Source of the DNA: a virus
Length of the DNA stretch: 44,189 bases
IMG/VR virus record: IMGVR_UViG_3300005527_000094
Location: 1 to 44,189 of that record
Strand: one strand, 5' to 3'
The notes beneath the pieces are model-generated. The model was given only the letters and a program-made list of their open reading frames with translations. It ran no database searches and had not been told where the DNA came from. A program made the translations under genes and the position numbers. Below are positions 33,391 through 43,730 of this stretch, piece after piece; position 1 is the stretch's first letter; every line of letters begins with the position of its first letter.

Positions 33391-34362
33391 ATGTACGGCT
33401 ATCATGAACTAACTTATGATTTAACTGATGTTTTTAATCAAATAAATCAAACTGAAATCTTTAAACACATATTTGGAGATTTTAATGTGGGAGAATATAT
33501 ATGTTCTCCTTTTAGGAAAGATGATAGCCCAGGGTGTTGGATTCAGTTTAGAAATGGAAAACTTTACTTTACAGATTTTGGAAGTAGTAAAGTTAATTTA
33601 GATGCTATAGGAATTATTCAAGAAAAATATTCATTTTCTTTTAGAGAAGCTATTGAGTTTGTACTAAACTTTAAAGCTGAAAATAAAGAAAGTGAATATT
33701 TCTTGTTTAAACAAAAGAATTTTAACTCTGATAGTGGAGAAACATACATTGAAGTATGTCCAAAACCTTTTGATAATTATCAAATGGCATATTGGTCACA
33801 ATTTGGTATTACAAGTACTCAATTGATTCAAGATAATGTTTTTGCTGTTAAATGGTATAGTGTAAATACTAAATCATTTACTCCATTTCCTATAGAAGCT
33901 TGTTATTCAATTAATTTTGGACAAGCTGTTAAAATATGTCGTCCTAAAGCTATCACTTACAAATGGATAACCAATGTAACTAAAAATACAATTGGTGGAT
34001 ACAAGTCTTTACCTTTTTTGGGTAAAGACTTATTCATTTCTAAAAGTTACAAAGATTGGAGAGTACTTTCCAATCTTGGTTTAAATTCCATTTACTTTCA
34101 AAATGAAGGTATGTTTCCTGAAATGGAAGTGCTTGAAACATATTTAAAACTATGGGATAATGTATATATATTATTTGATAATGATGATGCAGGCAAGAAT
34201 GCTTCATTGAAACTTAAGCAATATATAAACAATGCTTATCCTAATAAATCACAAATACTTACACTTCCAACTATTGAAAAAGACCCTGCTGATATAATAA
34301 AAGCAGGTAAAAAATCACAATTACAACAATTTTTAAATTTAACAACAAATGAGAACAGTTAA
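33391..34362 (+). CDS. DnaG-like primase
   Basis: 323 residues. The N-terminal part has ICSPFRKDDSPGC (37-49), the characteristic SPFRxDxxP turn of phage primase zinc-binding domains, and LYFTDFGSS. The Toprim domain shows LFDNDDAGKNAS (261-272), and a conserved Glu before it may lie at EMEVLE. It makes RNA primers for the DnaB-like helicase and PolB system. The next gene (ubiquitin-like) starts 14 bases inside its end, tying that cassette to the replication operon. Confidence 0.85.
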   Translation: MYGYHELTYDLTDVFNQINQTEIFKHIFGDFNVGEYICSPFRKDDSPGCWIQFRNGKLYFTDFGSSKVNLDAIGIIQEKYSFSFREAIEFVLNFKAENKESEYFLFKQKNFNSDSGETYIEVCPKPFDNYQMAYWSQFGITSTQLIQDNVFAVKWYSVNTKSFTPFPIEACYSINFGQAVKICRPKAITYKWITNVTKNTIGGYKSLPFLGKDLFISKSYKDWRVLSNLGLNSIYFQNEGMFPEMEVLETYLKLWDNVYILFDNDDAGKNASLKLKQYINNAYPNKSQILTLPTIEKDPADIIKAGKKSQLQQFLNLTTNENS

Positions 34363-35074
34363 AATTTATTCTACAACCAATGGTTTAAACCAATTGGAAA
34401 CTAAAGCAACAACTTGGGGTCAATTAAAAAATGAAATGAACCTTAGAGGTATTAATTACAGTGGTATGAAAGCTACAGAAAGTAGCAAAAATAACACTCT
34501 TGAATTAGATGAAGCAGGATTACCTGAAGGTAATTTTGTACTTATGTTATCTCCACAAAAAACTAAAAGTGGTAATGGTATGAGTTACAATGAATTGAGA
34601 GCTGCAATTAAAGCTCTTGTAGATAGTAGTGATGAAGCTAAAGCTCACTTTAATCATAGTGGTAAAAACTACACAAACAGAAGTAGAGCAGAATTAGAAG
34701 AGTTATATGAATCTTATTTGAAACTTGTACCTGCTAAATCTGAAACTGTAAAAGTTGAAGAAAAAGTAGAATTTAGTCGTCCAATAATGAATCTTGTAGA
34801 AGATGAATCAGGTGAAATTGTTGGAGAATTTCCTGAAGATGAAGAAGGAAATGAAGGCATGATTACAGATTGCATTGATGACTTAATGCTTACTGATGAA
34901 TATAATGAAAGAACTGATGATTTTGAATTAGCATTTCAATTGTTAAGAGGAGAAATTACTGCTGAAGAACTTAGAAGTAAAACTCCAATGATGCCAATTG
35001 TTCAAGAAAAAACAGCTCCTAAACTTTCACAAGAAGAAGAGGAGTGGATTAGAAAAATGCAAAATAAAGTTTGA
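34349..35074 (+). CDS. Ubiquitin-like (beta-grasp) protein with C-terminal extension
   Basis: 241 residues. Residues 1-70 read as a beta-grasp domain: strand MRTVKIYST, strand NQLETKA, helix TTWGQLKNEMNLRG, strands around MKATESSK and NTLELDE, and last strand FVLMLSPQ. The tail KTKSGNG (71-77) is followed by a helical domain (SYNELRAAIKALVDSSDEAK) and an acidic disordered tail. If it works like ubiquitin, the chain must be cut near Gly75 or Gly77 to expose a C-terminal Gly; the JAMM peptidase two genes on could do this. Resembles MoaD/ThiS-like proteins of Bacteroidota mobile elements. It overlaps the primase gene. Confidence 0.65.
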   Translation: MRTVKIYSTTNGLNQLETKATTWGQLKNEMNLRGINYSGMKATESSKNNTLELDEAGLPEGNFVLMLSPQKTKSGNGMSYNELRAAIKALVDSSDEAKAHFNHSGKNYTNRSRAELEELYESYLKLVPAKSETVKVEEKVEFSRPIMNLVEDESGEIVGEFPEDEEGNEGMITDCIDDLMLTDEYNERTDDFELAFQLLRGEITAEELRSKTPMMPIVQEKTAPKLSQEEEEWIRKMQNKV

Positions 35075-35101
35075 AAGTCAACTCTTTTAATTATTGCAAT
35101 T

Positions 35102-35152
35102 ATGGTTTTAGGTAGTATAGGCTTATTACTTTTAGTTGCTTATACATTATAA
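35102..35152 (+). CDS. 16-residue hydrophobic peptide frame
   Basis: ATG at 35102 opens MVLGSIGLLLLVAYTL and stops at 35152. The segment could insert in the membrane. It lies between the ubiquitin-like gene and a terminator. The frame is very short, and the upstream codons (ATTATTGCAATT) extend the hydrophobic stretch without an ATG. Coding status is doubtful, but the position deserves a ribosome-profiling look. Confidence 0.25.
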   Translation: MVLGSIGLLLLVAYTL

Positions 35153-35156
35153 AATT

Positions 35157-35184
35157 AAGGTCTTGGTAGAAATATCAAGACCTT
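35157..35184 (+). terminator. Hairpin terminator with GAAA loop inside the conjugation cassette
   Basis: AAGGTCTTGGTA pairs with TATCAAGACCTT (one G-U) around GAAA, followed by TTTAATTT. It separates the ubiquitin-like gene from the E2/JAMM/E1 genes and may set the ratio of modifier to enzymes. Confidence 0.85.
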
Positions 35185-35199
35185 TTTAATTTAACAACT

Positions 35200-36465
35200 A
35201 TGCTAAGTGTAAAACATTATTTAAGTAAAAAAAATTGGGGTGAATACATTCCAATAATTGAAAGAAAATTAAGAAGTGAAGATGTAACAACTTGGTTTCC
35301 ATATTATAATGAACTAAAAACAGTATTAGATAATCTTGGATTGGAATATGAAATATCTTTAAGTTATTCTTTTAAGGTGCATCATGTTGATTACAAGAAT
35401 CATTTGTATTTTACAAGTGAAGATGTTCATCCACTTGTAGTCAAACATTTTACAAGTTATGACACTTGTGTAGTATGTACACCTGTTGTTAAAGTAACTA
35501 TTCATTACCCTAAGATTCAAATTACTAACTCCAAAAAAGAATCAGTTGAAATTGAAGATTTATTTATAAGTTCTACATTTCATCTTAATGGAAAAGTATG
35601 TAATGATGGTTCATTTATGGAAGGTATGAAAACTACTTATTCAGCAGAACATCTTAAAATGGGTTATGTACATTCACATTTGCCAAGTAAGTCAAAATAT
35701 CAAAGTCAACAAGGTAAAATTTTTATCAAAGAAGAACAATATCAAAGATTTAGTAAATTTTGTACAGGTGAGGGGCCTATTACAAGTGTGTTTGTACTTA
35801 TAGAATCACATTTTAAATCTAATCCAATTAAAGATGATTCTTTTAAAGAAGAATTACAAAATCTTTATCAACTATGGTTTAGTGTAATAGATACAACTGT
35901 AAAATGGGAATCATTAGAAGGTACTCCTCATTACAGAATGGAAGCTATACATGAAACAGATTCTATCTTAAATGATAAAAATATTGTTGATACTCTTAAA
36001 GTTGCATCAAATTATTATGGAAAAATTAGAAATGTAATTGATACCAGTAAATATGATTTTTTCAATGAAAAAGGACAAATTGTAAAAAAACATGATTTTG
36101 AATTACTTGCATTTAAAGAAATTCCTGCAATTACTCCTAACTTTTTAGTAGCTTATAAAAACTTTTTAATAATTACTTGTGATGGGGTAGTTGTTGAAGA
36201 TGTTGCTACCTCTAATCAAGTATTTGAGTTTGTTATAACCCCTTCTAAAGTAGGATTTTACTTTAACAAAAATAAATTTAACTTAACTGTAAAACAAGAA
36301 ACAAGTAATGGAAAAATTGAATTTAGATTTAAACAGTTCTTCAAAGAACTTATCTACAAACTCTTTGAAAAACAATCATTCTACCACTCAAGGAACTACT
36401 ACCAAAATGTTCAAACAAGAAATCAAGCAACAATTGCCATTTCTGAACCTGATGGGGAGTCCTAA
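35200..36465 (+). CDS. E2-like conjugating enzyme candidate
   Basis: 421 residues. The centre has HYPKIQITN (102-110), VEIEDLFISSTFHLNG (116-131), GYVHSHLPS (155-163) and FCTGEGPI (187-194). A Tyr-Pro strand, His-containing segment and single Cys in a CxGxGP turn (Cys188) fit the E2/UBC-like families described in bacterial mobile elements, where Cys takes the modifier from E1. The order modifier, E2, JAMM, E1 supports it. The C-terminal 200 residues are unassigned. The HSH triad resembles but does not complete a JAMM motif, as no Ser/Asp follows at the right spacing. Confidence 0.5.
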   Translation: MLSVKHYLSKKNWGEYIPIIERKLRSEDVTTWFPYYNELKTVLDNLGLEYEISLSYSFKVHHVDYKNHLYFTSEDVHPLVVKHFTSYDTCVVCTPVVKVTIHYPKIQITNSKKESVEIEDLFISSTFHLNGKVCNDGSFMEGMKTTYSAEHLKMGYVHSHLPSKSKYQSQQGKIFIKEEQYQRFSKFCTGEGPITSVFVLIESHFKSNPIKDDSFKEELQNLYQLWFSVIDTTVKWESLEGTPHYRMEAIHETDSILNDKNIVDTLKVASNYYGKIRNVIDTSKYDFFNEKGQIVKKHDFELLAFKEIPAITPNFLVAYKNFLIITCDGVVVEDVATSNQVFEFVITPSKVGFYFNKNKFNLTVKQETSNGKIEFRFKQFFKELIYKLFEKQSFYHSRNYYQNVQTRNQATIAISEPDGES

Positions 36466-37492
36466 TGTAGTACTTTCAGAAACTGTACAAAAAAAGATTA
36501 ATCATCTATGTAAAGTAATTAATACTGTAGAGTGGAGTGGTTGTATGTTTTACAGTATAGAAGGTACTTTACTATCTCCTGAAACTTTAAAAATTGAAAT
36601 TGTAGATTTAATTCCTTTAGATAAAGGTACTACAGGATTTACAGAATATAGTTTTGATGAAAGAGTAATGCAATATCTTATAACTAATGATTATTTTCAT
36701 TTGAAAATTGGACATATTCATAGTCATCATAACATGAAAACCTTCTTTTCAGGTACAGATTTAGAAGAAGTAAATGAAAACTCTGAACACATGAATCCCT
36801 ATCTCTCCTTAATTGTGAATAATGCAGGAGATTTTAGTTGTAAATTAGCATTCAGAGTTAAATCATTACACACTCCAAGTTATGAACTACAAGACATTAA
36901 CAATAACAAGATTACTTTTACTAAAAAAGAAGCTACTGAATTTGTAGCTAATTATGATTGTAGAGTAACAAGTGCTGTTTCTTTAGATGATAGTTTCTTA
37001 AATCAAATTACAGAAATTTCTAAGAAAAGAGATGTAATTAATGAACAAAAAGCCATTGCTACTTTAGCACCACATTTTAGTAAAACTACTCCATTACATG
37101 ACTTTAACTTTAAAAATGATTTAGAGTTAAGTAATCCATTTACTTTTGAAGAAGATAATGAAGTTACATTAGAATCTGAAGAAGGATTTTATTGTTATGT
37201 ACTTAGATTAGGTCAAGCAATAAATGGAGATACAATGGAAGAAGTAATGGAAGATATTGAAGAATCTATTAAAGTTGATGGATTTAGTTTTGAAGAAGTA
37301 TCTAATATTATTAAAAAGAACTTTAGAAAATTTATCAAAGATTTTTATAACATGAAAGTTGTTGATAAAGAAGAGTTTAACTATTTATGGGAAGGATTAT
37401 TAGATGAAATTCAATTTTCAGAATTTGAATTTGTTGATGATTTTTTAGAACACTTAAACATGAAGGAAAATGGAAACAATAGAAAGAAATAG
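36407..37492 (+). CDS. JAMM/MPN+ metallopeptidase (deconjugase or modifier-processing)
   Basis: I choose the ATG at 36407 (59-base overlap); an ATG at 36308 would overlap by 158. From this start the 361 residues hold Glu42 (VEWSG) and a full JAMM motif: His105-Ser-His107, seven residues, Ser115, Gly-Thr, Asp118 (HSHHNMKTFFSGTD). These bind zinc and catalyse isopeptide cleavage in JAB/RPN11-type enzymes. The C-terminal region is acidic and helical. Likely substrates are the ubiquitin-like precursor at 34349 or its conjugates. Its last bases overlap the E1 start by 23. Confidence 0.85.
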   Translation: MFKQEIKQQLPFLNLMGSPNVVLSETVQKKINHLCKVINTVEWSGCMFYSIEGTLLSPETLKIEIVDLIPLDKGTTGFTEYSFDERVMQYLITNDYFHLKIGHIHSHHNMKTFFSGTDLEEVNENSEHMNPYLSLIVNNAGDFSCKLAFRVKSLHTPSYELQDINNNKITFTKKEATEFVANYDCRVTSAVSLDDSFLNQITEISKKRDVINEQKAIATLAPHFSKTTPLHDFNFKNDLELSNPFTFEEDNEVTLESEEGFYCYVLRLGQAINGDTMEEVMEDIEESIKVDGFSFEEVSNIIKKNFRKFIKDFYNMKVVDKEEFNYLWEGLLDEIQFSEFEFVDDFLEHLNMKENGNNRKK

Positions 37493-38204
37493 ATTTAAAG
37501 ATGCCTTATGGTTTGGTAAAGATTGTAAAATGTTAATTGGAGGAAGTGGTGGCATTGGCTCATGGTTAGCTTTCTTTTTAACAAGAGCAGGATTTAGCAC
37601 AACTGTTTATGATTTTGATACTGTAGAAGCTCATAATCTTGGAGGTCAGTTATTCAAAGTTTCAGATGTAGGTAAACCAAAAGTAGATGCTTTGACAGAT
37701 GTGATTGAAGAATTCAATGGTTATGATGTAAATATCACTACATATAATCTTAGATTAACTCATGAAACTGATTTAAGTACAATTACAAGATATTATCATG
37801 GGCCTGTTTTCTATATTAGTGCATTTGATAATATGGAAGCAAGAAAAATACTGTTTAGTAAATTTAAACTTCATCAATCAAGATATGATTACCCTGCCTA
37901 TTTTATTGATGGTAGATTACTCATGGAACAAATGAGAATTTATTGTTTTAATCAAAAACAAGAGAAACTTATGAATGATTATGAAACTAATCATTTATTT
38001 GATGATTCAGAGGTGATAGATGCTTCATGTACAATGAAACAAGTTTCTCATACAGCAGCTATGATAGCTTCTCACATGACTGCATTTATTACAAATGCAA
38101 TTACAAACATGTATGAATTTAACAGAGAAGAAGTATTTAAAGTACCTTATATTTGGGATTATCTTATTCCAAATAATTTAATAACTGAAACTCACACACT
38201 ATGA
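37470..38204 (+). CDS. E1/ThiF-family activating enzyme
   Basis: 244 residues. The Rossmann-type adenylation domain has GGSGGIGSW (24-32), Asp48 and Asp50 in VYDFDTVEAHNLGGQ (46-60), the DVGKPKVDAL segment (66-75) with a conserved Lys, and AFDNMEARK (118-126) with Asp120 and Arg125. Cys187 (DASCTMK) is placed where ThiF/MoeB-like enzymes carry the catalytic or metal Cys. The product should adenylate the ubiquitin-like protein and pass it to Cys188 of the E2 candidate. The stop overlaps the next gene by four bases. Confidence 0.87.
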   Translation: METIERNRFKDALWFGKDCKMLIGGSGGIGSWLAFFLTRAGFSTTVYDFDTVEAHNLGGQLFKVSDVGKPKVDALTDVIEEFNGYDVNITTYNLRLTHETDLSTITRYYHGPVFYISAFDNMEARKILFSKFKLHQSRYDYPAYFIDGRLLMEQMRIYCFNQKQEKLMNDYETNHLFDDSEVIDASCTMKQVSHTAAMIASHMTAFITNAITNMYEFNREEVFKVPYIWDYLIPNNLITETHTL

Positions 38205-38749
38205 GCTTTATAGATTATGCTTTACCACCAAGATTTATTTCAGGTAGGTATCAACAAACAAGGTTAGATATATTCAAAGGAGCAGATTATGATATGGAAT
38301 ATAGATTCTATCATGATAACTCTTATGATATTCTTAGTCTTGAAAAGAAATCTACTAAGTATTTAGAACAAGTGTTTTTAGCTGGAAGTTACAGGTTAGT
38401 TAAGTTTGTAGATAAGTTTTATGCAGGTCATGGGTTAATAATGAATACTCAATTAGAAATAATAGGTGCAATTGTAACTCTAAGAAGTACTTATGAAAAT
38501 GGTTTTCATTTTAAAAGAGGTAAGAACAGAAGAACAAATATTAGACCTGAAGCATGGTTTGCATTTTTTAGTTTTGAGTTTGTAGATAGTTTCCCAAAAG
38601 AATTCAGTAAAATTGTAAAATATTTGGGAGAAATTGGCATTTCTATTAAAATCATGTCAACTAAAGAACTAAATAAAACATTGAATAAAAAAAGAAATAC
38701 AATTGGACATCAAATTAACAATCCACAATTTTATTCATCTTTAAAATAA
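38201..38749 (+). CDS. Unknown protein coupled to the E1 gene
   Basis: 182 residues, aromatic and basic (YALPPRFISGRYQQTRLDIF ... FHFKRGKNRRTNIRPEAWFA), with a helical C terminus. It starts within the E1 stop (ATGA), so it is made together with the conjugation enzymes. It may be a substrate, a target adaptor or an unrelated replication protein. It is not recognised. Confidence 0.6.
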   Translation: MSFIDYALPPRFISGRYQQTRLDIFKGADYDMEYRFYHDNSYDILSLEKKSTKYLEQVFLAGSYRLVKFVDKFYAGHGLIMNTQLEIIGAIVTLRSTYENGFHFKRGKNRRTNIRPEAWFAFFSFEFVDSFPKEFSKIVKYLGEIGISIKIMSTKELNKTLNKKRNTIGHQINNPQFYSSLK

Positions 38750-42902: not shown

Positions 42903-42938
42903 ATTGTTTTGTATCTTTGTATTATAATACAAAACAAT
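42903..42938 (+). repeat. Perfect 12-bp inverted repeat before GIY-YIG gene
   Basis: ATTGTTTTGTAT (42903-42914) and ATACAAAACAAT (42927-42938) are exact reverse complements around CTTTGTATTATA. The loop side contains TATCTTTG, a match to the Bacteroidota -7 box TAnnTTTG. It lies between the ThyX-like stop and the nuclease start. It may be an operator, a terminator without T run, or a signature of the mobile gene. Confidence 0.7.
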
Positions 42939-42944
42939 AAAACA

Positions 42945-43730
42945 ATGATAGGAATTTATAAAATTGTCAATGGAATTACAAAAGATTTATACATTGGAAG
43001 TTCTCGTGAATTAGAAAACAGAAAAATACGACACTTTAAAGATTTAAGAAAAAATAAGCATCATTCAATAATTTTACAAAGAGCTGTTAATAAATATGGA
43101 ATACATAATTTCACTTTTGAAATTATTGAATATTGTAATGAAGAAGAATTAATGATAAGGGAACAATATTATTTTGATACATTGTTCCCTTTATACAATA
43201 TTGCACCAATTGCAGGAAGAGCATTAGGAATTAAACATTCAAAAGAATCTAATGCTAAAAAAAGAAAATATGCTTTAGAAAATAATGTAAGACCTCCATC
43301 TTCAACATGGATTGATAGGCAAAAATCTGTTAAAATGCTTGATTATAACACATTAGAGGTGTTAAATACTTTTGAATCTATTTCAGAAGCTTGTAGATTT
43401 ATTGGTAAAAATAGTACATATTGCTCAACTATTTCATCTTGTTGTGAAAATAAACGTTATTCTGCATTTGGTTATAGATGGTGTTATATTGAAAATTCTA
43501 TAGAAAATTTAAGAGCAAAGAAAGAAATCAAATGTTGGAATAAAGGATTAAAAATAAATAATAGAAAAAGTAAAAAAGTAAATCAATATGATTTACAAAA
43601 TAATTTCATAAAAGAATGGTCATCAGTTAAAGAAGCTGAAAAAATTTATGGAAAAGGTATTTCAAATTGTGCATTAGGTAAAAGCAAAACTTCTAATGGT
43701 TATATTTGGAAATATTCAATTAACAAATAA
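42945..43730 (+). CDS. GIY-YIG homing endonuclease with NUMOD1 repeats
   Basis: I take the ATG at 42945, inside an earlier TTG-started frame. 261 residues. GIY at 3-5 and YIG at 16-18, with the rest of the nuclease domain to about 95 (KYGIHNFTFEIIEYC, then EEELMIREQYYFDTLFPLYN). The C-terminal half carries two NUMOD1-type DNA-binding repeats (FESISEACRFIGKNSTYCST and EWSSVKEAEKIYGKGISNCA). Such enzymes spread to empty sites in related phages. It follows a palindrome and sits just after the ThyX-like gene, a common landing place. Confidence 0.9.
   Translation: MIGIYKIVNGITKDLYIGSSRELENRKIRHFKDLRKNKHHSIILQRAVNKYGIHNFTFEIIEYCNEEELMIREQYYFDTLFPLYNIAPIAGRALGIKHSKESNAKKRKYALENNVRPPSSTWIDRQKSVKMLDYNTLEVLNTFESISEACRFIGKNSTYCSTISSCCENKRYSAFGYRWCYIENSIENLRAKKEIKCWNKGLKINNRKSKKVNQYDLQNNFIKEWSSVKEAEKIYGKGISNCALGKSKTSNGYIWKYSINK

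What the first reader, a model, noticed from the sequence alone, without database searches (positions are those of the whole stretch)
34349..38204. Phage-encoded ubiquitin-like conjugation cassette: modifier, E2-like, JAMM, E1
Four successive genes read as a beta-grasp modifier, a protein with an E2-like Cys turn (Cys188), a metallopeptidase with a complete JAMM motif (HxHx7SxxD) and a ThiF/E1 enzyme with intact GxGGxG and Asp residues. E1 and JAMM are clear; the modifier is likely; E2 is tentative. Known relatives are PRTRC plasmid loci, the bacterial Bil system and CBASS Cap2/Cap3, but those act in plasmids or host defence. Here the set is in a crAss-like phage replication operon. It could modify replication proteins, virion proteins or host defence proteins. 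The combination deserves biochemical work.
Basis: partly seen in the sequence, partly recalled or inferred. Interest (0 to 1): 0.92.

Follow-up and report, generated by a model that had tools for sequence, protein, structure and literature searches.

The report
Phage-encoded ubiquitin-like tagging cassette
A family of gut and environmental phages, including cultured crAss-like phages, carries a four-gene kit that looks able to cut out, activate and attach a ubiquitin-like tag to proteins; no attachment has yet been shown, but the kit is inherited as a unit and could be tested in the laboratory now.

Summary
At 34349-38204 lie four genes: a precursor of a ubiquitin-like protein (Ubl), an E2-like candidate, a JAMM peptidase and an E1.

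The Ubl is only residues 1-75 of gene 1. It is a confident beta-grasp model that matches ubiquitin-family structures. It ends at the one invariant residue of the family, Gly75 (69/69), followed by a tail of 1 to ~260 residues, so it must be cut to mature. All JAMM ligands and the E1 and E2-candidate cysteines are invariant in 70-74 homologues.

The four genes keep order and strand in 84/84 phage loci with enough DNA, including crAss001 and DAC15. E1 and JAMM are homologues of plasmid PRTRC ThiF and PRTRC_A, in the same gene order as PRTRC. In relatives fetched by their primase, the Ubl domain and the three enzymes are present or absent together (20/20 against 0/4). Where they are absent, the tail stands alone as its own gene and rIIA-rIIB homologues occupy the slot.

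The E2 fold is not confirmed: no PDB fold match, and only a weak active-site match to PRTRC_B. Substrate and activity are unknown.

Verdict: a phage-borne variant of PRTRC-type Ubl systems, apparently unreported in the open literature searched.

The parts
33391..34362 (+). DNA primase (Toprim), the gene directly upstream; conserved neighbour
   Evidence: phrog_12622 1.5e-45; primase hit at or near g1 in 83 of 84 cassette loci
34349..34573 (+). Ubl domain of gene 1 (residues 1-75), beta-grasp, ending at invariant Gly75 (codon 34571-34573)
   Evidence: AF2 pLDDT 95-98 over residues 1-70, bbabb; Foldseek: ubiquitin, NEDD8, SUMO, BfUbb; Gly75 69/69
34574..35074 (+). C-terminal tail of gene 1: helical HeH/LEM-like segment (res 80-126), disordered linker, C-terminal helices; predicted to be cut off after Gly75
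   Evidence: Tail length 1 to ~260 aa in relatives; same module is a free-standing gene in relatives without the Ubl and enzymes
35200..36465 (+). Gene 2, E2-like candidate; Cys188 codon 35761-35763, His160 codon 35677-35679
   Evidence: C188, H160, G190 72/72; predicted alpha-beta4-Cys-alpha order; weak active-site match to PRTRC_B; no PDB fold match
36407..37492 (+). Gene 3, JAMM/JAB metallopeptidase (ORF open from 36308); E75 36530-36532, H138 36719-36721, H140 36725-36727, S148 36749-36751, D151 36758-36760 (numbered from 36308)
   Evidence: Ligands invariant; CSN5 and PfJAMM1 best PDB hits; hhalign to PRTRC_A E=3.6e-6
37470..38204 (+). Gene 4, E1/ThiF-like activating enzyme; GxGGxG 37542-37559; invariant Cys187 codon 38028-38030 (C-[ST]-x-K-Q)
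   Evidence: ThiF 3e-22; UBA5 best PDB hit 1.5e-14; PRTRC_ThiF hhalign E=2.9e-22
38201..38749 (+). Gene 5, fast-evolving gene of unknown function in the same run (crAss001 gp75 position); membership uncertain
   Evidence: Found in 65 of 91 loci by iterated HMM, no conserved catalytic residue

Best explanation
The four genes form a working Ubl conjugation system carried by the phage, of PRTRC-like ancestry. The Ubl is made as the N-terminal part of a fusion to a small HeH/LEM-like protein. The JAMM peptidase cuts after Gly75 to free the Ubl C-terminus and the tail protein (inferred). The E1 adenylates Gly75 and takes it on Cys187 as a thioester (inferred). It passes to Cys188 of the E2-like protein, which attaches it to a target, possibly a phage or host replication or defence protein (inferred; weakest step). 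The JAMM can also remove the tag (inferred). Shown here: folds of Ubl, JAMM and E1, invariant catalytic residues, the invariant cleavage-site Gly, and co-inheritance of Ubl domain and enzymes. Not shown: any activity, the E2 fold, the substrate.
For: Beta-grasp fold. Gly75 the only invariant residue of gene 1, at the end of the domain, always with at least one residue after it. Invariant E/H/H/S/D of JAMM, invariant E1 and E2-candidate Cys. Four genes in the same order and strand in 84/84 loci; the 7 others are cut by contig ends. Same order as PRTRC C-(F)-B-A-ThiF. Homology to PRTRC_ThiF and PRTRC_A above all 200 column shuffles. In a primase-based sample, Ubl domain present means all enzymes present (20/20 loci with >5 kb downstream); tail-only gene means none (0/4; 3 distinct). 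In PRTRC, Ubl tails after the Gly occur only where a JAMM is present (4/7 against 0/8, p=0.026). Precedent: BilC processes BilA to expose its Gly (PMC11354881); Cap3 cleaves at the cGAS C-terminus (PMC10097602).
Against: Gene 2 has no E2 hit by Pfam, PDB profile or Foldseek; AF2 model only pLDDT 75. The Arg of the E1 N-x-x-R-Q motif is Gly in 72/74 phage E1s, which could weaken adenylation. Gene 1 shows no profile similarity to PRTRC_C. Association tests are not corrected for phylogeny. No substrate is known.
Confidence: 0.72

Rival explanations
1. Activation and processing without protein conjugation: the Ubl is cut and adenylated/thiocarboxylated, and used as a sulfur carrier (ThiS/MoaD/Urm1-like) for nucleotide or tRNA modification, with gene 2 the acceptor enzyme rather than an E2.
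For: E1 hits MoeB/ThiF models; many JAMM-ThiS pairs act in sulfur metabolism (Iyer 2006, PMC1779556); gene 2 has no confirmed E2 fold.
Against: Closest E1 relatives by PDB profile are UBA5 and other canonical E1s; closest cellular operon is PRTRC, which carries an E2 family D protein; no rhodanese or sulfurtransferase in the locus; single Gly and C-[ST] thioester-type Cys rather than GG.
Confidence: 0.13
2. The Ubl is conjugated, but gene 2 is not an E2; it is a scaffold, substrate or non-E2 ligase, and the E1 transfers directly or through a host factor.
For: No E2 match by several methods; long extra C-terminal region and N-terminal extensions up to 695 aa.
Against: Cys188-x-Gly invariant 72/72 with upstream His160; same operon slot as PRTRC_B and a Cys-on-Cys local match above 200 shuffles; alpha-beta4-Cys-alpha-alpha order as in E2s.
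Confidence: 0.12
3. Degenerate or decoy set: the genes are kept for non-catalytic roles (for example sponging host defence Ubl systems such as Bil or CBASS).
For: Arg-to-Gly change in the E1 motif; phages are targets of Ubl-based defence (Cap2/Cap3, PMC10097602).
Against: All catalytic residues of JAMM, E1 Cys, E2-candidate Cys and Gly75 are invariant at 20-50% overall identity, which decoys would not need.
Confidence: 0.03

Closest known systems
PRTRC systems (Iyer et al. 2006 type 6d; PRTRC_A/B/C/E/F/ThiF on plasmids)
   Same: Ubl - E2-like - JAMM - E1 in the same order; E1 and JAMM homologous (hhalign E 2.9e-22 and 3.6e-6); shared HSH-x5-FFS-x-TD in JAMM; Ubl ends in a single Gly; also placed with replication or partition genes (ParB, dnaN, SSB, primase)
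   Different: No ParB, PRTRC_E or PRTRC_F genes found among the neighbours scanned; Ubl has no sequence similarity to PRTRC_C; Ubl always carries a tail, often a separate protein domain; phage genome; E1 lacks the R of NxxRQ
Bil (BilABCD) anti-phage defence
   Same: Four parts: Ubl, E2, JAMM, E1; precursor maturation by the JAMM (reported for BilC/BilA, PMC11354881)
   Different: Bacterial defence, ISG15-like double Ubl, CEHH E2 motif and E1 with a large Cys domain; the phage E1 is a 244-residue minimal enzyme and matches the BilD model only weakly (9e-4)
CBASS Cap2/Cap3
   Same: E1, E2 and JAMM chemistry; single C-terminal Gly/Ala
   Different: E1-E2 fused; the conjugated protein is the CD-NTase, not a Ubl; bacterial defence
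Lambdoid tail assembly TAPI/TAPK (Ub-like + JAB)
   Same: Phage-encoded beta-grasp domain with conserved Gly followed by a C-terminal domain, plus a JAB peptidase (Iyer 2006)
   Different: No E1 or E2; tail assembly genes, not replication

Membership tests
PRTRC (type 6d) system | E1 of PRTRC_ThiF family | tested here: inconclusive
   Homologous: NCBIfam 2.9e-10 but 39.9 bits against cut-off 144.75; hhalign 99.5%, E 2.9e-22
PRTRC (type 6d) system | JAMM of PRTRC_A family | tested here: inconclusive
   No NCBIfam PRTRC_A hit; hhalign 87.5%, E 3.6e-6, shared FFS-x-TD
PRTRC (type 6d) system | E2 family D protein PRTRC_B | tested here: inconclusive
   Local C-x-G active-site match, raw 23.4 against shuffle maximum 16.0, but E 0.016; no Pfam Prok-E2_D hit
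PRTRC (type 6d) system | Ubl PRTRC_C | tested here: not met
   No NCBIfam hit, no profile similarity; beta-grasp fold with terminal Gly only
PRTRC (type 6d) system | ParB, PRTRC_E and PRTRC_F present | tested here: not met
   No such hit among the adjacent genes scanned; no profile similarity of the five genes to PRTRC_E or F; gene order in relatives
Ubl conjugation system (general) | Beta-grasp modifier with exposed or exposable C-terminal Gly | tested here: met
Ubl conjugation system (general) | E1 with nucleotide-binding motif and catalytic Cys | tested here: met
   NxxRQ Arg replaced by Gly
Ubl conjugation system (general) | E2 with UBC fold and catalytic Cys | tested here: inconclusive
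   Cys invariant; fold not matched
Ubl conjugation system (general) | Covalent Ubl-target adducts | not testable with these tools
   Needs biochemistry or proteomics
JAMM/MPN+ peptidase | E...H-x-H-x7-S-x2-D | tested here: met
   Invariant in 70-71 homologues
Bil defence system | BilA-BilB-BilC-BilD homologues | tested here: not met
   PADLOC: only a weak BilD hit for the E1 (9e-4), none for genes 1-3

The most novel reading that the evidence does not exclude
Crass-like phages use a reversible ubiquitin-like tag of their own during infection to modify replication or host-defence proteins. The system does the job that rIIA-rIIB does in sister phages, because the two sets replace each other at the same site. 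The Ubl is released from a fusion protein, much as eukaryotic ubiquitin is released from ribosomal-protein fusions.
Probability: 0.2. Interest if true: 0.96.

Novelty: new variant of a known kind. Interest (0 to 1): 0.85.

Why it matters
Bacterial Ubl conjugation systems studied so far are mostly anti-phage defences or plasmid loci of unknown role. Here a complete-looking set is a standing part of a major phage lineage, including cultured Bacteroides phages (crAss001, DAC15); in crAss001 two of its genes are listed as 'thiamine biosynthesis protein' and 'metalloprotease'. It makes phage protein tagging directly testable, offers a short route to the function of PRTRC systems, and the swap with rIIA-rIIB suggests a role in host takeover or counter-defence.

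Tried and rejected
Ubl similarity of gene 1 to PRTRC_C by profile: none beyond shuffles. E2 fold of gene 2 by Pfam (58 members), PDB profile, Foldseek PDB and BFVD: significant matches only to other viral proteins, the named ones from crAss-like or uncultured podophages. Gene 2 as a second JAMM because of its HSH: rejected, first His not invariant (60/72) and no Ser/Asp. Gene 5 as PRTRC_E or F: no match. Prok_Ub (Pfam) in the crAss001 genome: none. Cellular copies of the phage E1: one MAG contig only. Fpv1 JAMM interruption as a known intron class: no Rfam hit. Literature: no paper in the open library was found that joins crAss-like phages or Crassvirales with a Ubl system; subscription papers and preprints could not be searched.

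Full report
Observation. The four ORFs lie at 34349-35074, 35200-36465, 36308/36407-37492 and 37470-38204 on the + strand, tightly packed after a primase and before RusA-like and exonuclease genes. The window has crAss-like head genes (MCP phrog_11589, portal, TerL) on the - strand and replication genes on the + strand. Its nearest cultured relatives by E1 are Fipvunavirus (48.7%) and, further off, Steigviridae such as crAss001 and DAC15. NCBI does not place Fipvunavirus in Crassvirales.

Conservation. An E1 profile fetched 80 further loci from viral contigs. HMMs seeded from the annotated phages found all four genes in the same order and strand in 84 of 84 loci with enough DNA; the seven without gene 1 are cut by contig ends. 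The annotated phages show the same run: in crAss001 primase gp80, gp79, gp78, gp77 'metalloprotease', gp76 'thiamine biosynthesis'. This sample is biased towards E1, so a second, primase-based sample was taken (below).

Gene 1, modifier. The only invariant residue in 69 sequences is Gly75, in [KR]-x-K-[SA]-G or close variants. AF2 gives a beta-beta-alpha-beta-beta domain over residues 2-69 with pLDDT 95-98 and a flexible stretch that holds Gly75. Foldseek returns ubiquitin, NEDD8, SUMO and Bacteroides fragilis ubiquitin (best E 4e-4; TM on the target up to 0.71). After Gly75 the tail varies from 1 residue (L051 ends KSGE, L055 KSGK) to about 260 and is never absent, so the Ubl must be cut to expose its Gly.

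Gene 2, E2 candidate. Cys188, Gly190 and His160 are invariant (72/72). AF2 (pLDDT 75) orders the elements as alpha, four strands, His, Cys, two helices, which is the E2 order. But Foldseek finds no E2 in the PDB, and Pfam and PDB profiles are empty. The best partner among PRTRC proteins is PRTRC_B, with Cys on Cys in C-x-G: raw score 23.4 against a maximum of 16.0 in 200 column shuffles, but E only 0.016. I treat E2 function as likely but unproven.

Gene 3, JAMM. Glu75, His138, His140, Ser148 and Asp151 are invariant. PDB profile hits are CSN5 (0.003) and P. furiosus JAMM1. The start is probably 36407: the 59-nt overlap with gene 2 recurs in crAss001 (62) and cr106_1 (59).

Gene 4, E1. ThiF 3e-22; best solved relative UBA5, 1.5e-14. 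Nucleotide motif, D48, D50, N56, K71, D120, R125 and Cys187 in C-[ST]-x-K-Q are invariant or nearly so. The Arg of N-x-x-R-Q is Gly in 72/74, an unusual feature.

Relation to PRTRC. The nearest plasmid E1s are mostly PRTRC ThiF. PRTRC order is ParB-E-C(Ubl)-F-B(E2)-A(JAMM)-ThiF, collinear with the phage set. Profile comparisons: E1 with ThiF E 2.9e-22, JAMM with PRTRC_A E 3.6e-6, both above all shuffles; gene 1 with PRTRC_C none. In 15 PRTRC-type loci, Ubls with residues after the Gly occur only where a JAMM is present (4/7 against 0/8, Fisher p 0.026, not tree-corrected). PRTRC also sits beside dnaN, ParB, SSB, Rad52 or primase genes, a shared replication setting.

Co-inheritance and the alternative occupant. 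In the primase-based sample, all 20 loci with a Ubl domain and more than 5 kb downstream hold the full set. In L149, L156/L157 and L168 the gene after the primase is the tail alone, starting MTRAE, MATRSE or MTRKE where the fused form reads SG-A-MSRAE, and none of the enzymes is found at the site; an E1 profile finds nothing elsewhere in those records (the records are fragments). Flanking genes are the same, and rIIA and rIIB homologues (phrog_612 1e-56, phrog_609 7e-32 in L149) lie where E2, JAMM and E1 would be. L158 has rIIA directly after the primase too (from coordinates). Over 46 records, 0 of 34 with E1 have rIIA; 3 of 12 without it do (p 0.014, not tree-corrected). More distant primase loci often have neither. 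So the Ubl domain comes and goes with the enzymes, the tail is a separate protein, and Ubl plus enzymes alternate with rIIA-rIIB. What rII does in T4 (overcoming Rex exclusion) is my own knowledge, so the idea of equivalent roles is a lead only.

Mechanism. Shown: Ubl fold, intact JAMM and E1 residues, invariant Gly, unit inheritance. Inferred: maturation by the JAMM (precedents BilC/BilA in PMC11354881; Cap3 cutting at the cGAS C-terminus in PMC10097602), E1 thioester, transfer to Cys188, reversible attachment to a target. The target is unknown.

Novelty. Iyer et al. 2006 described the type 6d operons and a Ub-like plus JAB pair in phage tail genes; the passages read do not describe a phage E1-E2-JAMM-Ubl set. 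The main texts of the crAss001 genome paper, its structural atlas and the 2021 crAss-like survey do not contain the terms searched. Subscription literature and preprints were not searchable. I rate it a new variant of a known kind.

Noticed in passing
L149 5419-8581; L156 10411-13722; L168 10317-14882; L158: rIIA and rIIB homologues occupy the cassette's slot between the primase (plus stand-alone tail gene) and the recombination genes in relatives lacking the Ubl and E1.
   Followed up: partly
L074 3313-4248 (residues 162-224): A crAss-like phage Ubl precursor carries a ribosomal L7/L12 C-terminal domain in its tail (PF00542, 3e-10), reminiscent of eukaryotic ubiquitin-ribosomal protein fusions.
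   Followed up: no
L006 1725-2928 (cr106_1): An HNH endonuclease gene splits gene 1 directly after the Ubl domain (ends KSGKF), leaving the tail as a separate ORF.
   Followed up: no
L001 6722-9014 (Fpv1): The JAMM gene is split near the active site, with a minus-strand ORF in the gap; hit spacing suggests FpV4 lacks about 1.7 kb here. No Rfam intron hit.
   Followed up: partly
L092, L095-L102, L105, L106, L108-L111 (PRTRC plasmids): PRTRC Ubls have residues after the terminal Gly only in loci that also encode the JAMM PRTRC_A (4/7 against 0/8).
   Followed up: yes
window 37470-38204, residue 59: Phage E1s replace the Arg of the E1 N-x-x-R-Q motif by Gly (72/74) while an Arg in D-G-R (149) is invariant.
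   Followed up: partly
L059, L060, L064, L068, L072, L085: Gene 2 homologues of 571-695 aa, longer than the usual 330-485; in L059 and L064 the extra length is N-terminal.
   Followed up: no
window 42909-43730: GIY-YIG/HNH-type homing endonuclease (phrog_314, 5e-25) next to thymidylate synthase.
   Followed up: no
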